Virus record (IMG/VR): IMGVR_UViG_3300022929_000029
Span: 1 to 57,282 of that record
Source of the DNA: a virus
Length of the DNA stretch: 57,282 nucleotides
Strand: one strand, 5' to 3'
Positions 1 through 57,282 of the stretch are shown here, piece after piece (the stretch's first letter is position 1; each line of letters starts with the position of its first letter). The translations under genes and the position numbers were made by a program. The notes beneath the pieces were generated by a model. It was not told the DNA's origin. It worked only from the letters and a program-made list of their open reading frames with translations, and searched no databases.

Positions 1-149
1 TATCAAACTAGAGCATGACATACGTGCCATCATAGACCGACAAGAGAAGAATGGATTCAGCCTTGATATACCAAAGGCTTCTATCCTTGTAGCTAAACTT
101 GCAGAAGAAGCTGCGGATATCGAACAGGAAATGCAAGAAATATTTCCAC
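1..149. repeat. Left copy of contig-terminal overlap
   Basis: The first 149 bases match the last 149 bases of the window. The first 126 or so look identical by eye. The last 29 differ at six sites, all synonymous third codon positions of the polymerase gene. This shows the contig closes into a circle (circularly permuted or circular assembly). It is not an ordinary duplicated locus, because the overlap lies inside one continuous reading frame. Confidence 0.9.
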
Positions 150-6749: not shown

Positions 6750-9034
6750 TGTATACTTTTGTTACATCGTTTAGTGAGAGTGGATACCACGAGTACGCCA
6801 AGAACATGCTGGAAAGTGTGGTCAATAAATGGAACCCTAAAGAGTTTAAACTCGTGGCTTACTACCATGACTTTGATATTAAAAGTGTGTCTCCCCCTAT
6901 GGCTGACAACATTGAGTATCGCAATCTTAATGACGTAAAAGAAATGCTTGAGTACCGTGAGCGTATGAAGTTTCATGATGGAACTGAAGGTGGTCAGATG
7001 AAATACAATTGGCGGCTTGATGCAATCAAGTGGTGTCATAAAGTATATGCAATGACTGATCTTGCCTTTGAAATTATGGAACAAGATGATCACGAGACTT
7101 GGATGATCTGGTTAGATGCAGATACGGTAACAACAAAACGGCTTGATGTAAAACAATTTAAAAAATGGCTGCCTGAAAAAGCAGACCTCGTACACTTAGG
7201 AAGAACAGATGCAGACTACAGCGAAACAAGTTTCATGGGCTTTAACTTGGGCATTCATAATACTTGCAGTCTCCTTGCTGACCTTAGAGGTGCTTACACT
7301 ATTGGTGAGGTAGTTGCATATCGTGAGTGGCATGATGGGTTTATCTTTGAACGTCTTCTTAATATCTACAAAGCACATGGCATGGTAACTAACAACCTGT
7401 CTGAAGGTGTCAAAGGTTTGGCAGCGTTTGCTCAGTCACCTTTGTCAGAATACTTTGATCACTTCAAAGGTAATTTAAAATCAAAGGTTAGCGATACAAC
7501 TGTGGCACCTGATGTTAATGGACCTAAACGATACAAACAATTGCTAGATCTTATTACTTTCTACAAGCCTAGTAATATTGTAGAGACTGGTACATGGAAT
7601 GGTGGACGTGCTATTCAAATGGCAGTTGCAGCATTTCAATACACAGATAAAGTACATTACACTGGCTTTGATTTGTTTGAAGAAGCTACCCCAGAATTAG
7701 ATCACATTGAATTGAACAGCAAGCCACACAATTCTAAGAAAGCTGTAGAAGCTAGGTTAGAAGAGTTTGCACGTAAAATGAAACCAATGGGTAAAATCTT
7801 TACGTTCAAGCTACATAAAGGTGACACAAAGAAAACACTCAAGGCTTGCAAGTCTATAAAGAAGGCAGACTTTGCATACATTGATGGTGGTCATTCTTAT
7901 GAAACAGTAAAGTCTGACTTTGAAAATCTAAAGCACGTACCTATTCTTGTGTTTGATGATTACTTTTCTAAAGACAAAGAAGGACGTATGCCAGACAACG
8001 ATGGTGTTAACCAACTTATGAAAGAGATTACGGCATATGGTAAGGTTGTCTTACCTTCTTCTGATGCAGTCATGGGTGGGGGTATAACTCATCTTTGTTT
8101 TGTAGCTATGAAGCAAGGTCTGCCTAAGATACCAGATGAACTGACACGTGTTCCCATTGTTGTCACACCAAAAGATTCTCGTCCTAAAGAGGAGATTATT
8201 AATAATGTTCTTGAAAATAAGAAACTAATTAAAGATTTTGATTGGATTAAAACAAGTAAGATCAATAATGAAACCGCCATCATTGTCTCTGGTGGTACTA
8301 GCACAGATTGGTGGGAAGTTAAGGATCGTATTGCTAAGACAAATGGTAAAGTATTCTGTGTTAAGCATAGCTATCCAAAACTTTTGGAGCAAGGCATTCA
8401 ACCGTTTGCTTGTGTGATCCTAGATCCACGTCCTATTACTGGCATGAGTACACATGGTGTAGTTCGTAAAGATTTGTTTGACAAAGTAGATGACAAAACA
8501 ATTATGCTTGTGGCATCTATGACTGATCCTTCAGTTACTAAACATCTTATCAAGAAGGGTGCTAATGTAAAAGGTTGGCAAGCTTACTCAGATGCCTTGC
8601 GTGATATGTCTGTTACAGATAAGATTGTAGTGGACAAGACAACAGGTATTGAAGAAGGCTCTACTCTTATCACTGGTGGTACTTGTGCAGCTATGCGTAC
8701 CATTGCTATTGCACATACACTAGGATTTAGAAACTTTGAACTGTTTGGTTTTGATTGTTCTGTTGGTGAAATAACAGAGGAAATGAAAAAAGAAACAACA
8801 GATACAGAGAAGCAACGACCTAAGTATATGCAAGTAGAAACAGGTGGTGAAAAGTTCTGGACTACAGGTGAACTACTAGCTATGGCACAAGACTGTGAGA
8901 AGCTATTTGATAATGATCAGATGGACATGGGAATTAATTTTCATGGTGAAGGTACTCTTGCCGCTGCAGTTTGGGAAGCGTCTAAACGTGGTAAGGAAAA
9001 GTATTACACAGAGTTGCTAGATGTCGCTGCTTAA
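6749..9034 (+). CDS. Three-domain protein: glycosyltransferase, SAM methyltransferase, DUF115-like
   Basis: 761 residues in three parts. Part one (1-230) is a second glycosyltransferase with a DxD in IWLDADTVTT near residue 120. Part two (255-450) is a class I SAM methyltransferase with NIVETGTWNGGRA (near 278) as the SAM loop and YIDGGHSYE (near 376), resembling the Methyltransf_24 type. Part three (505-761) carries AIIVSGGTS, ILDPRPITG and GFRNFELFGFDCS, the pattern of the DUF115/MAF family linked to surface-sugar or pterin-like chemistry. It probably builds and methylates a sugar together with the preceding glycosyltransferase. The target is not visible. The gene overlaps the small terminase gene by 14 nt. 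Confidence 0.75.
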   Translation: MYTFVTSFSESGYHEYAKNMLESVVNKWNPKEFKLVAYYHDFDIKSVSPPMADNIEYRNLNDVKEMLEYRERMKFHDGTEGGQMKYNWRLDAIKWCHKVYAMTDLAFEIMEQDDHETWMIWLDADTVTTKRLDVKQFKKWLPEKADLVHLGRTDADYSETSFMGFNLGIHNTCSLLADLRGAYTIGEVVAYREWHDGFIFERLLNIYKAHGMVTNNLSEGVKGLAAFAQSPLSEYFDHFKGNLKSKVSDTTVAPDVNGPKRYKQLLDLITFYKPSNIVETGTWNGGRAIQMAVAAFQYTDKVHYTGFDLFEEATPELDHIELNSKPHNSKKAVEARLEEFARKMKPMGKIFTFKLHKGDTKKTLKACKSIKKADFAYIDGGHSYETVKSDFENLKHVPILVFDDYFSKDKEGRMPDNDGVNQLMKEITAYGKVVLPSSDAVMGGGITHLCFVAMKQGLPKIPDELTRVPIVVTPKDSRPKEEIINNVLENKKLIKDFDWIKTSKINNETAIIVSGGTSTDWWEVKDRIAKTNGKVFCVKHSYPKLLEQGIQPFACVILDPRPITGMSTHGVVRKDLFDKVDDKTIMLVASMTDPSVTKHLIKKGANVKGWQAYSDALRDMSVTDKIVVDKTTGIEEGSTLITGGTCAAMRTIAIAHTLGFRNFELFGFDCSVGEITEEMKKETTDTEKQRPKYMQVETGGEKFWTTGELLAMAQDCEKLFDNDQMDMGINFHGEGTLAAAVWEASKRGKEKYYTELLDVAA

Positions 9035-9479
9035 TGATAAACAAGAACGGTTTTGTCAAGCCTATATCCTGCACAGAAATGCTACAAAAGCGGCAGCAAC
9101 TGCAGGATATAGTGAGACCTCTGCCCATAACCAAGGCCATAGGTTATTACAAGATGAACGAATTAAAGAACGAATTGACGAACTCACAAATGAGATTTCA
9201 ACAGATGTTGATGTTATCTCAGAAATCGAAAAGCAATATGAGGTTGCTCGTAATGCAGGTAATGGAAACACTGCTCTCAAGGCTCTTGAACTTCTTGCAA
9301 GGGTACGAGGAAACAATGCGGATGAAGTCAGCACAGATGAAGAAACATTAGAAATGGAAATCGTAAACGCTATCAGAGTAATGGGTGTTGAGAAATCGTT
9401 TCAGCTTTTTGAACTAGCGTTTCCCGAAGAATTTACTAGCACTACGGACACCGAAGCTGGCAGCGACAATGACACCTAG
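9021..9479 (+). CDS. Terminase small subunit
   Basis: 152 residues. The N-terminal half has the Terminase_2 signature: LNDKQERFCQAYILHRNATKAA, then AGYSETSAHNQGHRLL, then RIKERIDEL. This is a helix-turn-helix that binds phage DNA and starts packaging with TerL. Its place is odd. It is the last gene of the rightward arm, 34 kb and one strand away from TerL. It overlaps the upstream gene by 14 nt in another frame, and its last 66 bp overlap the convergent holin gene. Translation probably depends on coupling, because no strong ribosome site precedes 9021. Confidence 0.85.
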   Translation: MSLLNDKQERFCQAYILHRNATKAAATAGYSETSAHNQGHRLLQDERIKERIDELTNEISTDVDVISEIEKQYEVARNAGNGNTALKALELLARVRGNNADEVSTDEETLEMEIVNAIRVMGVEKSFQLFELAFPEEFTSTTDTEAGSDNDT

Positions 9480-40153: not shown

Positions 40154-40998
40154 TATATTAACCTTTGATAGTCACCATAAGGGTTACGTTCTATGCGTCC
40201 ACCTGATTTCTTTTGAACAATTTCTGATATGCGTGGTAGGTCTGCCAATCCTGCTTCAGCATTAATAGCCCTAACTTCTGCATCAGAAAGAACACGATTG
40301 ACTTTCATTTCACCACCAATAATCCAATTACCTGTCATATTAGGATTTGTTTTATATCTGTAATGTCCACGTTTAGGAAGTTGGTCAGTAATGTGTGCAG
40401 TTTTTATATCAGGTGTACCATCTTTTTTAATCCTTGCACGTTCATTTGCTACAGCTTGCCAATTAACATCGGCTGGCATTTCTACTTCTGCCCATACCTG
40501 ATTATCTTCACGAACATTAGGTTTAAACTTAGGGTCTTTAACACGTTTACCAGTAGCAGGGTCAATCTTACCACCAATATGTGTAGCCATAGGAAGATCA
40601 CCAGCGTGCCATCCAGGTCTAAAAGCTAATGGACCAAGAGTAGACTTTACTTTACCTGCATCTGTTAATTCACCTGCAGTTGCTTCCAACCATTTACCAA
40701 TTGGAACAGGTTCTTTTGCATTAACAAAAAGTGGATATAGTTCTCCGTCTTTACCAACTCTAAAAAGTTTAAATGCTTTTATAGTGTTTTGTGGTGGCTC
40801 ATAATCATGAACTTTAACTTTTTGTGTATTTTCTAAAAGTTCATCAGAAACTTTTGCTGCGGCTACTTGCTTCTCATCCATATTTGAAAGAGAGGCTAAA
40901 CCTTCACGTGCTTGATTAACTGTTTTAGGTGCAGCTTTTTTAGGGGCTTGTTTAGCAGAACCCTTAATTACTTCTTTAAGTATTTTACTGAGAGCCAC
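40153..40998 (-). CDS. Head-module protein, possible ejected effector with FRPGWH motif
   Basis: 281 residues. The ends match the neighbouring 298-residue protein (see there). The core has AFKLFRVGKDGELYPLFVNA, then LAFRPGWHAGDLPMATHIGG, then VWAEVEMPADVNWQ. I have seen this FRPGWH-HIG pattern in large polyvalent phage proteins, where it may be an enzyme-like or toxin-like domain. With virion docking ends, it is a candidate protein delivered with the DNA. The function is not proven. Confidence 0.6.
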   Translation of the reverse strand: MALSKILKEVIKGSAKQAPKKAAPKTVNQAREGLASLSNMDEKQVAAAKVSDELLENTQKVKVHDYEPPQNTIKAFKLFRVGKDGELYPLFVNAKEPVPIGKWLEATAGELTDAGKVKSTLGPLAFRPGWHAGDLPMATHIGGKIDPATGKRVKDPKFKPNVREDNQVWAEVEMPADVNWQAVANERARIKKDGTPDIKTAHITDQLPKRGHYRYKTNPNMTGNWIIGGEMKVNRVLSDAEVRAINAEAGLADLPRISEIVQKKSGGRIERNPYGDYQRLI

Positions 40999-43489
40999 TT
41001 TGTTTTGCTCCTTCCATTAATACCTTAGTAAGAACGTCAACCCCTTTCATAGCTTCTGTTTGATCAAGCTGCTCTTGCGTTTTAATCAAATCAGCAATAA
41101 GCTTGAGTGCTTCGATTGCACGTTTGTTATTACGATCAGCTTCTTTTTCGTCAGCCTTCAAGGTATTCTCTGCACCAATCTTATAGGCATCAAGAGAAAG
41201 CTTCTGTTCTTTAAGGTCAAGGTCACGTTGCTTGAGTGCGCCTTCGACAGCTTCTTTAGCAAGCTGTGCCTGTACTTTTTGCTGTTCAATGTCAAGACGT
41301 TGTGCTTCCATTTGAACCATTGCTTGCTCTGGTGTAGGACCAGCTTGAGCAGCGGCTTGGTTTGCTTGCATAACTTGCTGTGCAGCTTGAGCCATAACCA
41401 TTTCAATAATCTGTGGGTTCTGAGCATTTGGATCACCCGCAGGTGCCTCTGCCATCATACCACGTGTTACGCCTTGTATTTGTTCTTGATACTTCATAAT
41501 CATATGCTCTTGAATGTTTGCCTGAAGGACAGGAGCAATACGTTGCATCATTGGGTTTCCACCATTCATAGGATCTTGCATATACATAGTCTTGATCTGA
41601 ATATGTGCATCATGATTTTGTCCAGCAAATGCTTTGATAGGCAATCCTTTAACTGCTGCTTCAATATCTGATACAGGATCAAGAGGTTGTGCTGCCAGTT
41701 TACTTGGAAGGATCTTATCAATATTAGGAATATTAGCCGCATGTAATAATGTACGGTTTAGTTCTTCCATGTTGTACATGCCCGGAGGAGCCGTTTGAGC
41801 CAACTGCATAGCCATCTGTGTCATCATAAGACGATGTGCGGATGACGGAATGTTTGGATCACTGACAGGAACAACGTCTACCCGCCCATCGAAGTCACGC
41901 CTAAAGACATTCTCTGTAATACCAGGTACATCATACGGATAACTGTTAGGCAAGAACTCATAGTTCAAACGAGCAAGAATTTTAAACTCGTCTTTCTGTG
42001 ATTTATGCAGACGCTTATGAATAGCTGAAAAGAACTTGCTAGATGCTTCAAGCAATGCCATAGTCGTACCGACAGGACCATAGTTAGCCCCATCTGTAAT
42101 GACTTGCTCAGTCGTATCTGCAAACTTCTGACCTGCCGCTGCAATAAACTGTAGCAACGTAAACAATGTACCTGAAGGTTCTTTATAAGGCAAAGGCACA
42201 ATAGACTTGGTAAGATCCATGCCTGTTGCTTCTACTTCCTTAAATTCACCCGGAGCCACTGGATCATTGTCACCTACAATACGTACACCCTTGGCTTTAA
42301 ATCCACCAGGCAAGTTAGCAAACTGTCCTGCGTCAATAAGGTTACGCAGTGCTGCAGTTGCAGACATAGTAAGGTTGCCAAGGAAATGGATAAGACCTAG
42401 ACCATAAAAACCAAAGCCCGGAACAAACCGATAATGTGTAAAGAACATTTTCTTTTTCTTTGTTTTGTCATCTTCATTCCAGTTACGGCGAATAGACAAA
42501 ACCATACGTGACTGTTCTTCTACAGTTACAATATACGGACAAGCATATCCATGATCTTCAATGTCCAGATAACAGTGCTGCTCAAGCAACACATACTGTG
42601 GATCGTCATCGCCTGAAGGTGACAAACCAAGAACTGTGTCCATCTTTTCAGTAAGAGCAGACTGTTCTGGTTGTTTCGCTTCCGGCAGATCTATTTCGGC
42701 ATACATACCTGCTTCGATCTGACGATACAGTTCATGAGGACTGCGATAGATTACATGGGTATAGCGGTCCGCCCTGCGTAAGTCTGTGGCATAGTAGGAC
42801 ACGTAGAATTGATCTATGGGAACAAACTCACTAACAGGGCGTTCTTCTGCTGCGTCATAGTAAATTTTCTTAAACGCAGAACCTATGAGTGGAAGATGGA
42901 ACAGCATCCTCTCAAATTCATCAAAGTATTCGGGCATTTGTTCAGTCAACTGATAGTTCATAAAGTTCTGAACACGTGATGCCTGACGTTGTTTTTCTTC
43001 TGTAGCATCGCCTAATACCTGTGTCTTGACAGGTCCAGCGGCTGGAAATAATTCTTGGGAAGCTCTTGACTGAAACTTTACTGCAGATTCAATAAGCAAT
43101 GGATGCACTGCAGTTGCTGCACCTTCAAATGGTTCTGTAGTTTCGTCAAGCTTTAGACCAAGCAGATCAAAGCCACGCTCAAACATAGATTCCCATTCAG
43201 ATCTGGAATCTCTATCTGCTTCAAACTTTTCACATACCTGATTACCAATGTCTAGTAGTTCGTCTTCGTCCAGAGTTTCAACTAGGTTTTCATAGAAGCC
43301 GCCTTTTTCCATTACGGCAATACCGTCTTCGTCAATCTCAACCTCTACAGATCCAAAGTCTACTTCGACTTCGCCTGTTTCTGGATCTATTTCAATACTT
43401 ACATTGTCTGTGGGATCTCGTTCAACATCCAGTGCAATTACATTGCTCACTGGTGCATCAACCTCATAAGGGTTTCTTTCTGTTGCCAT
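40985..43489 (-). CDS. Portal protein (large, P22/podovirus type)
   Basis: 834 residues. An acidic N-terminal 60 residues precede the portal core (GFDLLGLKLDETTEPFEGAA, then HPLLIESAVKFQSRASQELF, then WNEDDKTKKKK). A long Gln/Ala/Glu coiled-coil C-terminus (about 690-830) could form the barrel, as in P22 gp1. The portal is the DNA entry ring and nucleates head assembly. It follows TerL and overlaps the next gene by 14 nt. Its N-terminal TERNPYE echoes the ERNPYG end motif of the two neighbouring proteins. Confidence 0.8.
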   Translation of the reverse strand: MATERNPYEVDAPVSNVIALDVERDPTDNVSIEIDPETGEVEVDFGSVEVEIDEDGIAVMEKGGFYENLVETLDEDELLDIGNQVCEKFEADRDSRSEWESMFERGFDLLGLKLDETTEPFEGAATAVHPLLIESAVKFQSRASQELFPAAGPVKTQVLGDATEEKQRQASRVQNFMNYQLTEQMPEYFDEFERMLFHLPLIGSAFKKIYYDAAEERPVSEFVPIDQFYVSYYATDLRRADRYTHVIYRSPHELYRQIEAGMYAEIDLPEAKQPEQSALTEKMDTVLGLSPSGDDDPQYVLLEQHCYLDIEDHGYACPYIVTVEEQSRMVLSIRRNWNEDDKTKKKKMFFTHYRFVPGFGFYGLGLIHFLGNLTMSATAALRNLIDAGQFANLPGGFKAKGVRIVGDNDPVAPGEFKEVEATGMDLTKSIVPLPYKEPSGTLFTLLQFIAAAGQKFADTTEQVITDGANYGPVGTTMALLEASSKFFSAIHKRLHKSQKDEFKILARLNYEFLPNSYPYDVPGITENVFRRDFDGRVDVVPVSDPNIPSSAHRLMMTQMAMQLAQTAPPGMYNMEELNRTLLHAANIPNIDKILPSKLAAQPLDPVSDIEAAVKGLPIKAFAGQNHDAHIQIKTMYMQDPMNGGNPMMQRIAPVLQANIQEHMIMKYQEQIQGVTRGMMAEAPAGDPNAQNPQIIEMVMAQAAQQVMQANQAAAQAGPTPEQAMVQMEAQRLDIEQQKVQAQLAKEAVEGALKQRDLDLKEQKLSLDAYKIGAENTLKADEKEADRNNKRAIEALKLIADLIKTQEQLDQTEAMKGVDVLTKVLMEGAKQSGSQ

Positions 43490-43530: not shown

Positions 43531-43559
43531 ATTATACCCTTAAGCTCTCCAGTACGCAA
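43531..43559 (-). promoter_or_regulatory. Possible promoter upstream of the portal gene
   Basis: Reading leftward, TTGCGT (43559-43554), 17 bp, then TATAAT (43536-43531) lie at the end of the TerL gene and in the 50-bp gap before the portal. The -35 is weak, so confidence is limited. Confidence 0.35.
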
Positions 43560-45099
43560 CCCTCTTTTTTGTTCTTGGCTCGTCTTCCCAATTAGGATCT
43601 TCAGGGTGGATAAGGTTCCAACTGTCCTTCATGTAATGAACAGCCATAGTCATACAGTCAACTTGGTCATCGTGTGCGCCATTAGGAAATGACATACACT
43701 CTTCAAACAAATCGTCTGCAAATTGTCTGTCCTTTGGTAGCCACACACGCCCTGATTCCATCATAGGCGTTGAAGCGTATACCCTTGCAACCTTGTCACG
43801 GTCAGGTAGATAATCCAGTACAGGTAGACCTGCCCTTCTCATATCCTGTATAAGGGATTGTCCTGAAGCTTTCTTTTCAATAATACAAACATCGGGTCTA
43901 TACTCCTGATATAATTCTTGGGCAATCCTACGCAGTTCAGGATATTCAAACCTCCCCCGGATGTTACCCAGGAGAATTAGATTGGACGTAATATGCTCAC
44001 CACCGTACTCGTCTTTTTCAAACTGACTAAAGATACCCCAAGTCTGGATAACGCTGTAGTCGGCAGTCCTGCGGGTACTAAAGGCCGTGTCATAGGTCTG
44101 GATAATAAAGTCACAGTTAGGTGGCTCGTCATCTTCCCACCATTCAATCCAACGCTTCTTGATAATACCACCGTCATCTGGGCTAGGATCTTGCATATAC
44201 AAAGAGTTCCAGTACCTGGCACCGTTGGTTGCTCGTATTTCCTGTTCGTCAACCCTAAGAACTTCGTCAGGTTTCCACTCAGGGAAGTACGAAGTACCTT
44301 CTGGTAGTCCTAATAAGTCTGCAGCTTCTTCGTCAAGCCATGCAGGTATACTAATAACTTCCCATTTGTTTGTTGTTTCTTCTACCTTACTTTCTTGTTT
44401 CAATAACCAACCACAAAGATCGTCATAATGATACCTTGTATTGACAATAATAATAGAACCGTTAGGCATAATACGAGTACGTAAGCCTGCAGGATACCAT
44501 TCCTTGATATACCTACGTCCTGCTTCGCTAAATGAATCCTCTTCAGACATTACGTCATCCAATAGGGCTACGTGTGCGCCACGTCCTGCTACTTGGCTAC
44601 GTACACCTGCTGCATAATAGGAACCATTCTGGTTTGTTTTCCATTTACCTGCCGCCTTAACGTCACTACGTAGTGCTACACCTCTAAAAATCTTTTGAAA
44701 CTTCTCAGTATTGACAATATCCCTGACAGTTCTACCAAAATCACTGGCAAGCTGGTCAGAGTGAGACACTGACATAATTTCATGGTGTGCAAAGTTACCA
44801 ATGTACCATGCAGGAAACAATTTACTACAGATTACCGACTTAGATGAGCGAGGTGGTAGGAATACCATCAGTCGTTTGGTAGATCCGTCCACTACTCCCT
44901 GTAGCTTTTCACATAATAACTCAATATGCCTACCCATTTGGAAGTCTGAAACAATTGTGGGTGCAAATATCTTGACAAAGGTTAGGAAATCATCCTTGGC
45001 TTTGTAGTTATTGTAGTTATTAATCTTCTCTCGCAGGGTTAAGTAGGCTGACACACCCTGAATATCAGGGAGTTCTTCATTAGTATGACTATCTAACAT
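43540..45099 (-). CDS. Terminase large subunit
   Basis: 519 residues. The ATPase half has a Walker A-like PPRSSKS (82-88), Walker B HVALLDD (176-182, with E/D catalytic residues just after), and coupling blocks around IIVNTRYHYDDL. The nuclease half has IQTYDTAFS and DYSVIQ (first acidic pair) and GAHDDQVDCM near the end (last acidic pair). It pumps DNA into the procapsid and cuts the concatemer. Its small-subunit partner is encoded far away at 9021-9479 on the other strand. Confidence 0.92.
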   Translation of the reverse strand: MLDSHTNEELPDIQGVSAYLTLREKINNYNNYKAKDDFLTFVKIFAPTIVSDFQMGRHIELLCEKLQGVVDGSTKRLMVFLPPRSSKSVICSKLFPAWYIGNFAHHEIMSVSHSDQLASDFGRTVRDIVNTEKFQKIFRGVALRSDVKAAGKWKTNQNGSYYAAGVRSQVAGRGAHVALLDDVMSEEDSFSEAGRRYIKEWYPAGLRTRIMPNGSIIIVNTRYHYDDLCGWLLKQESKVEETTNKWEVISIPAWLDEEAADLLGLPEGTSYFPEWKPDEVLRVDEQEIRATNGARYWNSLYMQDPSPDDGGIIKKRWIEWWEDDEPPNCDFIIQTYDTAFSTRRTADYSVIQTWGIFSQFEKDEYGGEHITSNLILLGNIRGRFEYPELRRIAQELYQEYRPDVCIIEKKASGQSLIQDMRRAGLPVLDYLPDRDKVARVYASTPMMESGRVWLPKDRQFADDLFEECMSFPNGAHDDQVDCMTMAVHYMKDSWNLIHPEDPNWEDEPRTKKRVAYWRA

Positions 45100-45299
45100 T
45101 AAGTAGGTGTACCCTTTTTAATTTGACATTTATATTTTATTCCTATAACTGGAGGTGTTCTTTCATCAGAAACAAAATCACTAACCATCTCGGTTATTCT
45201 AGCTTTACAAGACATTTCTGTTTTGTGCAAACCTCTAGTGTCTGTCAATTCTATACATTCTGTAGAGATTAGACAAACTAAAACTAACGCTTCAAACAT
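45099..45299 (-). CDS. Small Cys-containing protein, possibly exported
   Basis: 66 residues. The hydrophobic N-terminus (MFEALVLVCLISTECIEL) could be a signal or anchor. Four Cys (C9, C15, C31, C58) and TDTRGLHKTEMSCKARI recall small disulphide-type proteins seen next to terminase genes in marine phages. It is the first gene of the late arm, 1 nt overlapping TerL. Confidence 0.55.
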   Translation of the reverse strand: MFEALVLVCLISTECIELTDTRGLHKTEMSCKARITEMVSDFVSDERTPPVIGIKYKCQIKKGTPT

Positions 45300-45363
45300 A
45301 ATTAATCCTTATGTGTTGTATTTTTATCACACTCTTTAAAAAATGTACTGGTTGACAAACAAA

Positions 45364-45393
45364 AGTATACCATAGCTATTGACAATCATACAA
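45364..45393 (-). promoter_or_regulatory. Probable late-arm promoter, overlapping the early promoter
   Basis: Reading leftward, TTGTAT (45393-45388), 18 bp, then TATACT (45369-45364), about 65 nt before the first late gene. Its -35 lies inside the spacer of the rightward promoter at 45379-45407, so the two cannot be occupied together. Confidence 0.5.
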
Positions 45394-45407
45394 GTGAATG
45401 TTATAAT
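45379..45407 (+). promoter_or_regulatory. Perfect-consensus early promoter
   Basis: TTGACA (45379-45384), 17 bp, then TATAAT (45402-45407), pointing into the early arm. The first early gene starts about 950 nt downstream, which gives a very long leader containing the palindromes and GAAC sites. Another TTGACA at 45352-45357 lacks a good -10. Confidence 0.7.
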
Positions 45408-45490: not shown

Positions 45491-45777
45491 ATATAGACTA
45501 TTAAGCCCCGGCTGTCCCCCATGTCTATTAGGAACGCTAATATACCTCATAGGTATCCGTGTTTTTTTATTTCATCTATTTTTCCCTACATCATCCGTCA
45601 AAAAATTGACAGTATCTATAGAGATTTCTGTAGGTACCCTTTTTGTGTTGCAAAAATATTACAGTCAATGATTAAAGACCCTTGTTTTTTTGAAAATATG
45701 TTTGGGGGTGTCTTTATATATTATATAGTCTACGGATTTTTTTGGTGGGGGTGTCAAAAAATTGACGCTTCTACCGA

Positions 45778-45792
45778 GAACAAATCGTGAAC
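45778..45792. promoter_or_regulatory. GAAC-N7-GAAC site (LexA-like box) 1
   Basis: GAAC at 45778-45781 and 45789-45792, spaced 7 bp. The direct repeat GAAC-N7-GAAC (GTTC-N7-GTTC on the other strand) is the SOS box of alphaproteobacterial LexA. It lies between two GTCAA palindromes. Confidence 0.5.
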
Positions 45793-45855
45793 AAAAAAAA
45801 GTCAAGCAAAATCTTGTCAATAATTTGACGTGTCAAAACTTTGACGCCCGGAAAA

Positions 45856-45870
45856 GAACAAAACGAGAAC
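45856..45870. promoter_or_regulatory. GAAC-N7-GAAC site (LexA-like box) 2
   Basis: GAAC at 45856-45859 and 45867-45870 with 7 bp between. It has the same form as the sites at 45778 and 46197 and lies 11 bp after the fourth GTCAA palindrome. Confidence 0.5.
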
Positions 45871-46020: not shown

Positions 46021-46040
46021 CATACGAAAGACCTGTATAG

Positions 46041-46078
46041 TGTGACATTTTTACAACACCTGCAGCATAAATGTCACA
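46041..46078. repeat. 10-bp perfect inverted repeat
   Basis: TGTGACATTT (46041-46050) and AAATGTCACA (46069-46078), with 18 bp between. The inner arms TGACATT and AATGTCA are the same as those overlapping the promoter at 5922-5950, which suggests one regulator acts at both. Confidence 0.75.
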
Positions 46079-46196: not shown

Positions 46197-46233
46197 GAAC
46201 GAAACAGGAACGTACTAGGAACGAAACAGGAAC
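46197..46233. promoter_or_regulatory. Four-unit GAAC array with 11-bp period (LexA-like)
   Basis: GAAC occurs at 46197, 46208, 46219 and 46230, each exactly 11 bp apart. Within it GAACGAAACAGGAAC is repeated perfectly (46197-46211 and 46219-46233). Three overlapping GAAC-N7-GAAC boxes result. The array lies 130 bp before the first early gene. Confidence 0.6.
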
Positions 46234-46363
46234 ATTGCAGATTTTCAAAAATCACCCAAAATAAAACCCAATAAAATCAATGACTTATTTTTTAGGCTTG
46301 AAAGCTGCTTTTTTTTCATTCATAACATAATCACAAGAACAAAACAGAAAAGTGATTAAGACA

Positions 46364-46567
46364 ATGGCAAGGCAAAGATTAAATCCAAAACGGCGGAAAG
46401 CTTTAAGAGTAAAACAAAGCTTATCGCATAATGTGCCAGCCATTAGCAACGGTTATAAATTTTGGACAATGCGTCACGGTAAAGAGATGCAAAACATAGA
46501 ACCAATAAAAGAACCATTGCCAACAATTGCGGAAAGGTTGCGAGTGAAAAAAGCACACACTAGGTAA
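46364..46567 (+). CDS. Small basic protein, first early gene
   Basis: 67 residues from the ATG at 46364; a GTG at 46352 in the same frame would add four residues. The N-terminus is very basic (ARQRLNPKRRKALRVKQSLS), suggesting nucleic-acid or ribosome binding. As the first gene of the early arm, it is likely a host-takeover protein. No family is recognised, and the ribosome site is weak. Confidence 0.5.
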   Translation: MARQRLNPKRRKALRVKQSLSHNVPAISNGYKFWTMRHGKEMQNIEPIKEPLPTIAERLRVKKAHTR

Positions 46568-46891: not shown

Positions 46892-46959
46892 TTGGACTGC
46901 AATGGGTTTTAAATAATCCATTGCAAGCCTATATTAACTTGAAACAAAAGGATTTGAAA

Positions 46960-47559
46960 ATGTTCAAAAATCATCAAACAAAAATAGGCCAGGCCTGCGC
47001 TGCAAGTCCTGCAGCCGTTGCTGACACTATGATTTGCGTTATCAATTCTATTCGCACCCATTGGTATTTAGTGGGAAATATGAATATTGACGTAAAACAA
47101 AATGGTTTGGATAGCAGATATCTAAACAATGCAGTAAAGGCAAAAGCCTATAAATATATCCAGCGGAATAAAAAAGATATCCATGCAAAATTTGCTGATT
47201 ATAAAGCTGGTAAAATTGATCTTCCCGATTTGCTTTTGTATGTGGCATCATGCCCTAATCTTGGACTAGCAAAGGCAGGTTTCGTAATCCAATTGGCTCT
47301 TGGCGAGATAGGCTGTTTAGATAGTCATAATCTGCAACGGTTCGGATTATCTGCCAGCACGTTCAAATATGGTGCGAATGCGTCATATGCTTTGATGCGT
47401 AAAAAAGCAGAATTATATATCGACACATGCGAAAAGCTAGGCGGGTGTGAACACCTATGGGATAGCTGGTGTGACTATTTGGCAACGGTTCACCCAACAA
47501 AATATAGTGATGGTGAACACGTCTCGCAAATGCATGTTGATTTCATACTAGGTAAATGA
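46960..47559 (+). CDS. HhH-GPD glycosylase-like protein
   Basis: 199 residues from the ATG at 46960 (AAAGGA upstream). The centre, LGLAKAGFVIQLALGEIG then CLDSHNLQRFGL, resembles the helix-hairpin-helix and catalytic Asp of base-excision DNA glycosylases. In endonuclease III the Lys in GVGRKTA and the Asp in VDTH lie 18 residues apart; here the Lys in LAKAG and the Asp in LDSH lie 16 apart. There is no Fe-S cysteine set. It could remove or recognise modified bases, or use the fold only for DNA binding. The assignment is by motif only. Confidence 0.5.
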   Translation: MFKNHQTKIGQACAASPAAVADTMICVINSIRTHWYLVGNMNIDVKQNGLDSRYLNNAVKAKAYKYIQRNKKDIHAKFADYKAGKIDLPDLLLYVASCPNLGLAKAGFVIQLALGEIGCLDSHNLQRFGLSASTFKYGANASYALMRKKAELYIDTCEKLGGCEHLWDSWCDYLATVHPTKYSDGEHVSQMHVDFILGK

Positions 47560-56679: not shown

Positions 56680-57282
56680 AACGTATAGCACTTGACATTG
56701 AAACAGATGGTATTGACGCAAAGGTAGTACACTGTGTATGTGGTCAAGATGTAGATACAGGAGAAAGGTTTGAGTGGCATGAAAATAACAATGGCTTTGA
56801 CAGCCTGCCTAGATTACTATCTACATATGATGTTATTGTTATGCACAATGGCGTATCATTTGATGCACCAGTATTAAACAAACTACTAGACGCAAAGATA
56901 CCTCTGTCTAAGATACGTGATACTCTAATACTATCACAGATTGTAGACCCTTCCCTAGAGAATGGACATAGCTTGAAAGCTTGGGGTCAAAGACTAGGGG
57001 AATACAAAATGGATTACTCTGACTTTTCTCAGTTTAGCATGGAGATGTTAGAGTATTGCAGACAGGATGTTGAAGTAACTATTAAGTTATACAAACACCT
57101 GTTGCCTAAACTACAGAAGTTCTCTGCTAGGTCTATCAAACTAGAGCATGACATACGTGCCATCATAGACCGACAAGAGAAGAATGGATTCAGCCTTGAT
57201 ATACCAAAGGCTTCTATCCTTGTAGCTAAACTTGCAGAAGAAGCTGCGGATATCGAACAAGAGATGCAGGAAATCTTCCCGC
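56676..57282 (+). CDS. Family A DNA polymerase, N-terminal 3'-5' exonuclease part (cut by contig end)
   Basis: The first 202 codons of the polymerase that continues at base 2. Exo I ALDIETDG (D7, E9), Exo II MHNGVSFDAPVL and Exo III YCRQDVEVT are complete, so proofreading should be active. It starts with an ATGA overlap. Joined at the overlap (57133 to 1) the frame is kept and gives 552 residues. Unlike the HMO-2011 type polymerase I know of, no DnaJ-like zinc insert is visible between exonuclease and polymerase parts. Confidence 0.95.
   Translation, partial: MKRIALDIETDGIDAKVVHCVCGQDVDTGERFEWHENNNGFDSLPRLLSTYDVIVMHNGVSFDAPVLNKLLDAKIPLSKIRDTLILSQIVDPSLENGHSLKAWGQRLGEYKMDYSDFSQFSMEMLEYCRQDVEVTIKLYKHLLPKLQKFSARSIKLEHDIRAIIDRQEKNGFSLDIPKASILVAKLAEEAADIEQEMQEIFP
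57134..57282. repeat. Right copy of contig-terminal overlap
   Basis: Matches 1-149. The last 29 bases differ from the left copy at six positions, each a synonymous third-position change in the polymerase gene (for example CAG/CAA, TTT/TTC). The two contig ends therefore come from slightly different strains. Confidence 0.9.

What the first reader, a model, noticed from the sequence alone, without database searches (positions are those of the whole stretch)
46197..46233. Four GAAC units in perfect 11-bp phase, with two more GAAC-N7-GAAC boxes nearby
GAAC-N7-GAAC is the alphaproteobacterial LexA box. An 8-base fixed motif is expected about once per 65 kb per strand in random DNA, yet five pairs occur within 460 bp here. 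The phage may sense the host SOS state through LexA, or use a phage iteron with the same shape. It also points to an alphaproteobacterial host.
Basis: partly seen in the sequence, partly recalled or inferred. Interest (0 to 1): 0.8.

Follow-up and report, generated by a model that had tools for sequence, protein, structure and literature searches.

The report
LexA-like operator array in marine phage
A presumably lytic phage of an alphaproteobacterium carries, between its early and late genes, a row of evenly spaced short sites that look like those used by the host's DNA-damage repressor LexA; many unrelated environmental phages carry similar rows, so phages may be tapping the host SOS switch, although whether LexA really binds them is untested.

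Summary
Four GAAC units sit in exact 11-bp phase at 46197-46233, and two more GAAC-N7-GAAC pairs lie nearby. All are on the + strand of a 1.05-kb non-coding region between leftward terL and rightward early genes (0 of 20,000 shuffles reach even three pairs). The sites are conserved in close relatives. GAAC-7-GAAC is the top-ranked repeated dyad in relatives' regions without any prior. GAACAAA-type arrays also recur in dozens of other phage lineages. The binder is most likely host LexA (about 0.5). Alphaproteobacterial recA, lexA, umuD-type and sidA-like promoters carry the same sites, some of them phased triples. Nine distinct recA/lexA boxes are letter-identical to phage sites. The window is depleted in the CcrM site GANTC (0.43), as roseophages are, which supports an alphaproteobacterial host independently. 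Against LexA: phage sites prefer C9-G10 (28 G:14 A) where host boxes have C9-A10 (5 G:105 A); no array overlaps a recognisable promoter; some arrays are symmetric or have up to seven units; cultured relatives lack them. A non-LexA factor with a LexA-shaped site, an origin or a packaging site remain possible. 'LexA box' is therefore a supported but unproven reading. SOS sensing is inference.

The parts
46197..46233 (+). four-unit array GAACGAAACAG-GAACGTACTAG-GAACGAAACAG-GAAC (11-bp phase; three overlapping GAAC-N7-GAAC)
   Evidence: all four GAAC invariant in L009, L010, L013
45778..45792 (+). GAACAAATCGTGAAC pair
   Evidence: conserved in the close clade
45856..45870 (+). GAACAAAACGAGAAC pair
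   Evidence: conserved also in L015 and L018 (terL 88-89%)
46337..46351 (+). degenerate unit GAACAAAACAGAAAA (one GAAC only)
45753..45766 (.). GTCAA-N4-TTGAC palindrome, 11 bp from the pair at 45778
   Evidence: fixed N10 composite found in 10 viral contigs
45832..45845 (.). GTCAA-N4-TTGAC palindrome, 10 bp from the pair at 45856 (further copies at 45597, 45816, 45885)
45379..45407 (+). 12/12 sigma-70 promoter TTGACA-N17-TATAAT with TG extension, reading towards the GAAC sites and the early genes
   Evidence: conserved in nine relatives, one base changed in L015
45300..46351 (.). divergent non-coding control region between late (terL) and early operons, GC 0.33
43540..45099 (-). terminase large subunit (start of the leftward late genes)
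45099..45299 (-). 66-aa conserved gene directly before terL
46352..46567 (+). first early ORF (71 aa, basic, no known family)
46921..47559 (+). 212-aa early gene with relatives in Paracoccus, Roseobacter and Ruegeria phages

Best explanation
The array is a multi-site operator for the host's LexA repressor, placed in the control region between the phage's early and late operons. Shown here: four phased half-sites plus two pairs, all in one orientation, downstream of a near-perfect host-type promoter and upstream of the early genes; conservation in close relatives; and identity of site type with host SOS boxes. Inferred: LexA dimers occupy adjacent half-sites (units 1-2 and 3-4), holding back or roadblocking rightward early transcription or titrating LexA. 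When the infected or damaged host activates RecA and LexA is cleaved, or when phage copies outnumber LexA, the block is lifted. The phage would thereby couple its programme to host SOS state.
For: Core and 7-bp spacer are those of the published alphaproteobacterial motif GTTCN7GTTC (PMC12700426). Boxes are present in 51 of 60 sampled lexA promoters and 22 of 60 recA promoters. recA boxes have position 5 = A .83/G .17 and phage sites A .83/G .16; position 16 is A .81/G .19 in lexA boxes and A .81-.82/G .12-.16 in phage sites; A7 is strong in both. Nine distinct lexA/recA 15-mers occur verbatim in phage contigs, for example GAACAAAACAAGAAC and GAACAAAAGGAGAAC. GAACAAANCRNGAAC occurs 110 times in 181 alphaproteobacterial genomes against 22 for the reversed control; neighbours include lexA/umuD-type peptidases, a UmuC/DinB polymerase and nine Rv2578c-type radical-SAM genes. 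Phased triples stand before recA in one genome and before a 28-aa SidA-like ORF in Mesorhizobium, Aminobacter and Agrobacterium. GANTC O/E is 0.43 in the window (p 3e-15), 0-0.43 in most roseophage stretches and 0 in S. meliloti phage phiM5, against about 1 in Vibrio, gammaproteobacterial and most Pelagibacter phages. No single phage gene family accompanies the arrays across lineages, and no phage-encoded LexA was found.
Against: Within GAACAAAnC[A/G], phage sites prefer G at position 10 (28:14 and 60:25) while host sites have A (5:105; p 2e-15 and 6e-24). None of the window's own 15-mers was seen among sampled lexA/recA boxes. The best promoter lies several hundred bp upstream and does not overlap the sites. 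Phage arrays reach seven phased units or are mirror-symmetric, unlike ordinary LexA operators. Close relatives such as L019 and L026, and cultured alphaproteobacterial phages including phiM5, lack them. The host is not identified.
Confidence: 0.5

Rival explanations
1. A regulator other than LexA (phage-encoded or an unknown host protein) recognises the LexA-shaped element GAACAAAnCGnGAAC as tandem half-sites and controls the early/late switch, like the oriented repeated operators or stoperators of some phages.
For: Consistent C9-G10 preference across phages of GC 0.28-0.57, absent from host LexA boxes; all sites in one orientation relative to early transcription in the window; fixed-distance composite with the GTCAA-N4-TTGAC palindrome; strong sigma-70 promoters near but not overlapping many arrays.
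Against: No common gene next to the arrays across lineages; no HTH regulator among the window's early genes by Pfam; rapid loss and gain between near relatives is easier if the binder is host-encoded.
Confidence: 0.28
2. The array is part of the replication origin: short 11-bp iterons bound by an initiator, next to an AT-rich stretch at the point where GC skew and transcription diverge.
For: Cumulative GC-skew minimum at about 46 kb; tandem 11-bp repeats in an AT-rich region; GAACAAA repeats occur inside a putative rep gene next to parA on an Oligoflexia contig (L211).
Against: The skew follows gene orientation; no initiator gene found beside the array; repeats are absent in near relatives (L019, L026); the SOS-gene promoters with the same site are not origins.
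Confidence: 0.12
3. The array is a terminase recognition (pac/cos) site.
For: In several other phage groups the array is about 70-220 bp from terS, on either side, with terL and portal following; the window family always has terL within 0.3-1.4 kb; terminase families are among the commonest neighbours of 48 array loci.
Against: In the window terS (9021-9479) is about 20 kb from the array; cultured phages with related terminases lack the array; phage ends are unknown.
Confidence: 0.07
4. Chance or low-complexity repetition in an AT-rich spacer.
For: Six pairs in the whole window is only moderately unlikely under genome-wide shuffles (2 of 100).
Against: 0 of 20,000 regional shuffles reach three pairs; conserved and re-derived in relatives.
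Confidence: 0.02

Closest known systems
Alphaproteobacterial LexA (SOS) boxes, GAAC-N7-GAAC / GTTC-N7-GTTC (Caulobacter, Rhizobiales, Rhodobacterales)
   Same: core, spacing, purine after GAAC, A at position 7; phased triples exist at recA and at SidA-like genes
   Different: phage sites are multi-copy, lie away from the promoter, and prefer CG at positions 9-10
Phages that use host LexA: Bacillus phage GIL01 (PMC4551915) and, from my own knowledge, CTXphi, coliphage 186 and N15
   Same: host LexA would bind phage regulatory DNA
   Different: those are temperate or chronic and use single or few boxes overlapping a promoter; here no lysogeny gene was seen in the window and the boxes are phased arrays
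Stoperators of mycobacteriophage L5 (from memory)
   Same: repeated, oriented operators away from the promoter could act as roadblocks
   Different: bound by a phage repressor, scattered genome-wide; here clustered in one region
HTVC023P-type and HMO-2011-type marine podoviruses
   Same: distant relatives by terL (38-41% aa) and by the 212-aa early gene (CRP-9)
   Different: cultured members have no array; CRP-9 has one matching site upstream of its early genes

Membership tests
Alphaproteobacterial LexA box | GAAC-N7-GAAC direct repeat | tested here: met
Alphaproteobacterial LexA box | flanking and spacer preferences of real host boxes (purine after GAAC, A7) | tested here: met
Alphaproteobacterial LexA box | host-like bases at positions 9-11 | tested here: not met
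   phage C9-G10 against host C9-A10; the four-unit array itself has CAG/TAG, closer to hosts, the two pairs have CGT/CGA
Alphaproteobacterial LexA box | site overlaps or abuts the promoter it controls | tested here: not met
   (consensus scans only)
Alphaproteobacterial LexA box | host is an alphaproteobacterium with lexA | tested here: inconclusive
   GANTC depletion and CRP-9 link; host not identified
Alphaproteobacterial LexA box | bound by LexA in vitro/in vivo | not testable with these tools
   needs gel shift or ChIP
Iteron replication origin | cognate initiator and replication start at the repeats | not testable with these tools
   no initiator recognised near the array
pac/cos site | adjacent to terS or at genome ends | tested here: inconclusive
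   adjacent in other groups but terS is about 20 kb away here; ends unknown

The most novel reading that the evidence does not exclude
A broad, mosaic set of apparently lytic phages of alphaproteobacteria independently acquires phased multi-half-site LexA operator arrays in their early/late control region, used as an SOS gate or as a LexA sponge that derepresses host recA and repair genes during infection.
Probability: 0.3. Interest if true: 0.78.

Novelty: new variant of a known kind. Interest (0 to 1): 0.55.

Why it matters
If LexA binds, phages without visible lysogeny genes would be wired into the host SOS circuit, giving a simple, testable link between DNA damage in marine bacteria and phage replication. 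If another protein binds, a widespread phage operator that copies the LexA geometry awaits its protein. Either way the element is a usable marker: it recurs in dozens of unrelated environmental phages and, in this window, goes together with GANTC depletion that points to an alphaproteobacterial host.

Tried and rejected
Phage-encoded LexA: none in the window or 33 related or array-bearing records. Host by DNA identity: no megablast match in phages; blastn with an idealised array found nothing. Other LexA box types in array-less relatives: only other repeats were found (GGAT-N10-CAATAT). GAACAT signature of terminal half-sites: mildly enriched in the window family (T .38 at +2), not in other groups, so not used as proof. 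uvrA promoters gave few boxes. The background correlation is contaminated by pattern-selected loci and is not used as a null. Many hits of the bare four-GAAC pattern are coding repeats or other families and were set aside. One Oligoflexia hit (L211) is a repeat inside a gene. tRNA scan negative.

Full report
What is there. The window is a virus record (G000) whose last about 140 bases repeat its first with small differences, so it is a circular or circularly permuted genome of about 57.1 kb. Structural genes run leftward (terL 43540-45099, portal 40985-43489). Early, replication and nucleotide genes run rightward from 46352 (C5 methylase, MazG, primase-helicase, polymerase, ribonucleotide reductase). 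Between them lies a 1,052-bp AT-rich non-coding region that holds the finding. The nearest cultured terminases are HTVC023P/HTVC027P-type podoviruses at 38-41% amino-acid identity.

The observation. GAAC at 46197, 46208, 46219 and 46230 is in exact 11-bp phase, and pairs stand at 45778 and 45856; all are on the + strand. None of 20,000 regional shuffles produced even three pairs, and the only same-strand GAAC spacings up to 40 bp are 11, 22 and 33. In close relatives (terL 94% or more) both pairs and the four-unit array are kept. All 32 core bases are invariant against L010 and L013, where the surrounding 560 bp are 89-91% identical; this is suggestive only, p 0.06-0.10. At 85-89% terL identity the sites turn over: two pairs in L015 and L018, one in L020 and L021, none in L019, and new phased arrays in L029, L030, L031, L037 and L039. 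An unbiased count of all tetramer dyads with spacers 0-12 in 14 relatives' regions ranks GAAC-7-GAAC first, repeated in 12 of 14.

Other elements of the region. A 12/12 sigma-70 promoter with extended -10 (45379-45407, +) reads toward all GAAC sites and the early genes and is conserved. Five GTCAA-N4-TTGAC palindromes are present. Two sit 10-11 bp from a GAAC pair; the fixed 10-bp composite was found in 10 viral contig stretches. A third element, TGTTGC-N6-GTCACA, takes the place of the GAAC sites in L026 compared with L025.

How widespread. The triple GAACAAA-N4-GAACAAA-N4-GAAC was found in at least 120 viral stretches. Of these, 80 contigs are listed, forming 50 DNA-level clusters with GC 0.28-0.58; a few of these lie in coding repeats. 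Some have mirror-symmetric arrays (L411, L414, L431) or seven units (L444). In complete or long records the sites usually sit in one region, with the reversed control pattern near zero. Several groups have the array next to terS or upstream of terL. No single gene family accompanies the arrays across lineages.

Is it LexA? The published Caulobacter motif is GTTCN7GTTC (PMC12700426). I sampled host promoters: 51 of 60 lexA promoters carry a GAAC-N7-GAAC box, mostly GAAC[TC]AAA[CG]TAGAAC, and 22 of 60 recA promoters carry one, roughly GAAC[AG]NAANNAGAAC. Phage sites share the purine after each GAAC in nearly the same proportions as recA boxes, share A7, and nine distinct lexA/recA boxes recur letter for letter in phage contigs. 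Sites of the form GAACAAANCRNGAAC are 5-fold over the reversed control in 181 alphaproteobacterial genomes (110 against 22, my sum of the table). They lie beside lexA/umuD-type, UmuC/DinB-type and Rv2578c-type genes. Phased triples occur before recA (L238) and before a 28-aa SidA-like ORF in Rhizobiales; the SidA name is my own resemblance, not a tested assignment. The host indication is independent: the CcrM site GANTC is depleted to 0.43 in the window, 0-0.43 in most roseophage stretches and 0 in phiM5, but about 1 in Vibrio, gammaproteobacterial and most Pelagibacter phages. Roseobacter phage CRP-9 has GAACAAATCAGGAAC in the untranslated stretch before its early genes.

What does not fit. 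Phage sites prefer C9-G10 (28:14; other groups 60:25) where host boxes have C9-A10 (5:105), p 2e-15 and 6e-24. The four-unit array itself (CAG/TAG) is closer to the host type than the two pairs (CGT/CGA). No promoter overlaps the array by consensus scan. Cultured phages with related terminases, including one of S. meliloti, lack arrays. Some array-bearing contigs are not GANTC-depleted or are even enriched, so the host inference applies to the window, not to every array phage.

Conclusion. The site is real, conserved and part of a widespread phage element. Host LexA is the best single candidate binder (about 0.5), because it is the only regulator I know with this geometry and because the motif spreads without a companion gene. 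Regulation by SOS state, roadblocking or LexA titration are inferences. A different protein with a LexA-shaped site is the main rival.

Noticed in passing
window 45379-45407: Perfect 12/12 sigma-70 promoter with extended -10, conserved in relatives; likely the main early promoter.
   Followed up: partly
window 45597, 45753, 45816, 45832, 45885: Five 14-bp GTCAA-N4-TTGAC palindromes, two at fixed distance from GAAC pairs.
   Followed up: partly
window 45313-45332, 45645-45665, 46040-46059; L026, L031, L453: TGTTGC-N6-GTCACA-like element recurs in the same control regions and replaces the GAAC sites in L026.
   Followed up: no
window, whole: GANTC strongly depleted (65 against 150 expected).
   Followed up: yes
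L185, L203, L433, L453: Array-bearing contigs in which GANTC is enriched 2-2.6 fold instead of depleted.
   Followed up: no
window 1-149 and 57134-57282: Ends of the record overlap with small differences: circular or permuted genome, possibly mixed strains.
   Followed up: no
L212, L223, L236, L250, L290: 28-aa SidA-like ORF in Rhizobiales behind TTGACA and a phased triple GAAC operator.
   Followed up: partly
L211 6452-6960: Oligoflexia contig with 11-bp GAACAAA repeats inside a putative rep gene next to parA.
   Followed up: no
L069 and L056, terL-upstream region: Distant relatives carry other repeats (GGATACATAGAAATCAATATATA type) before successive small early genes.
   Followed up: no
L425 near 8100: A parS-like TGTTTCACGTGAAACA palindrome lies beside the GAAC sites.
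   Followed up: no
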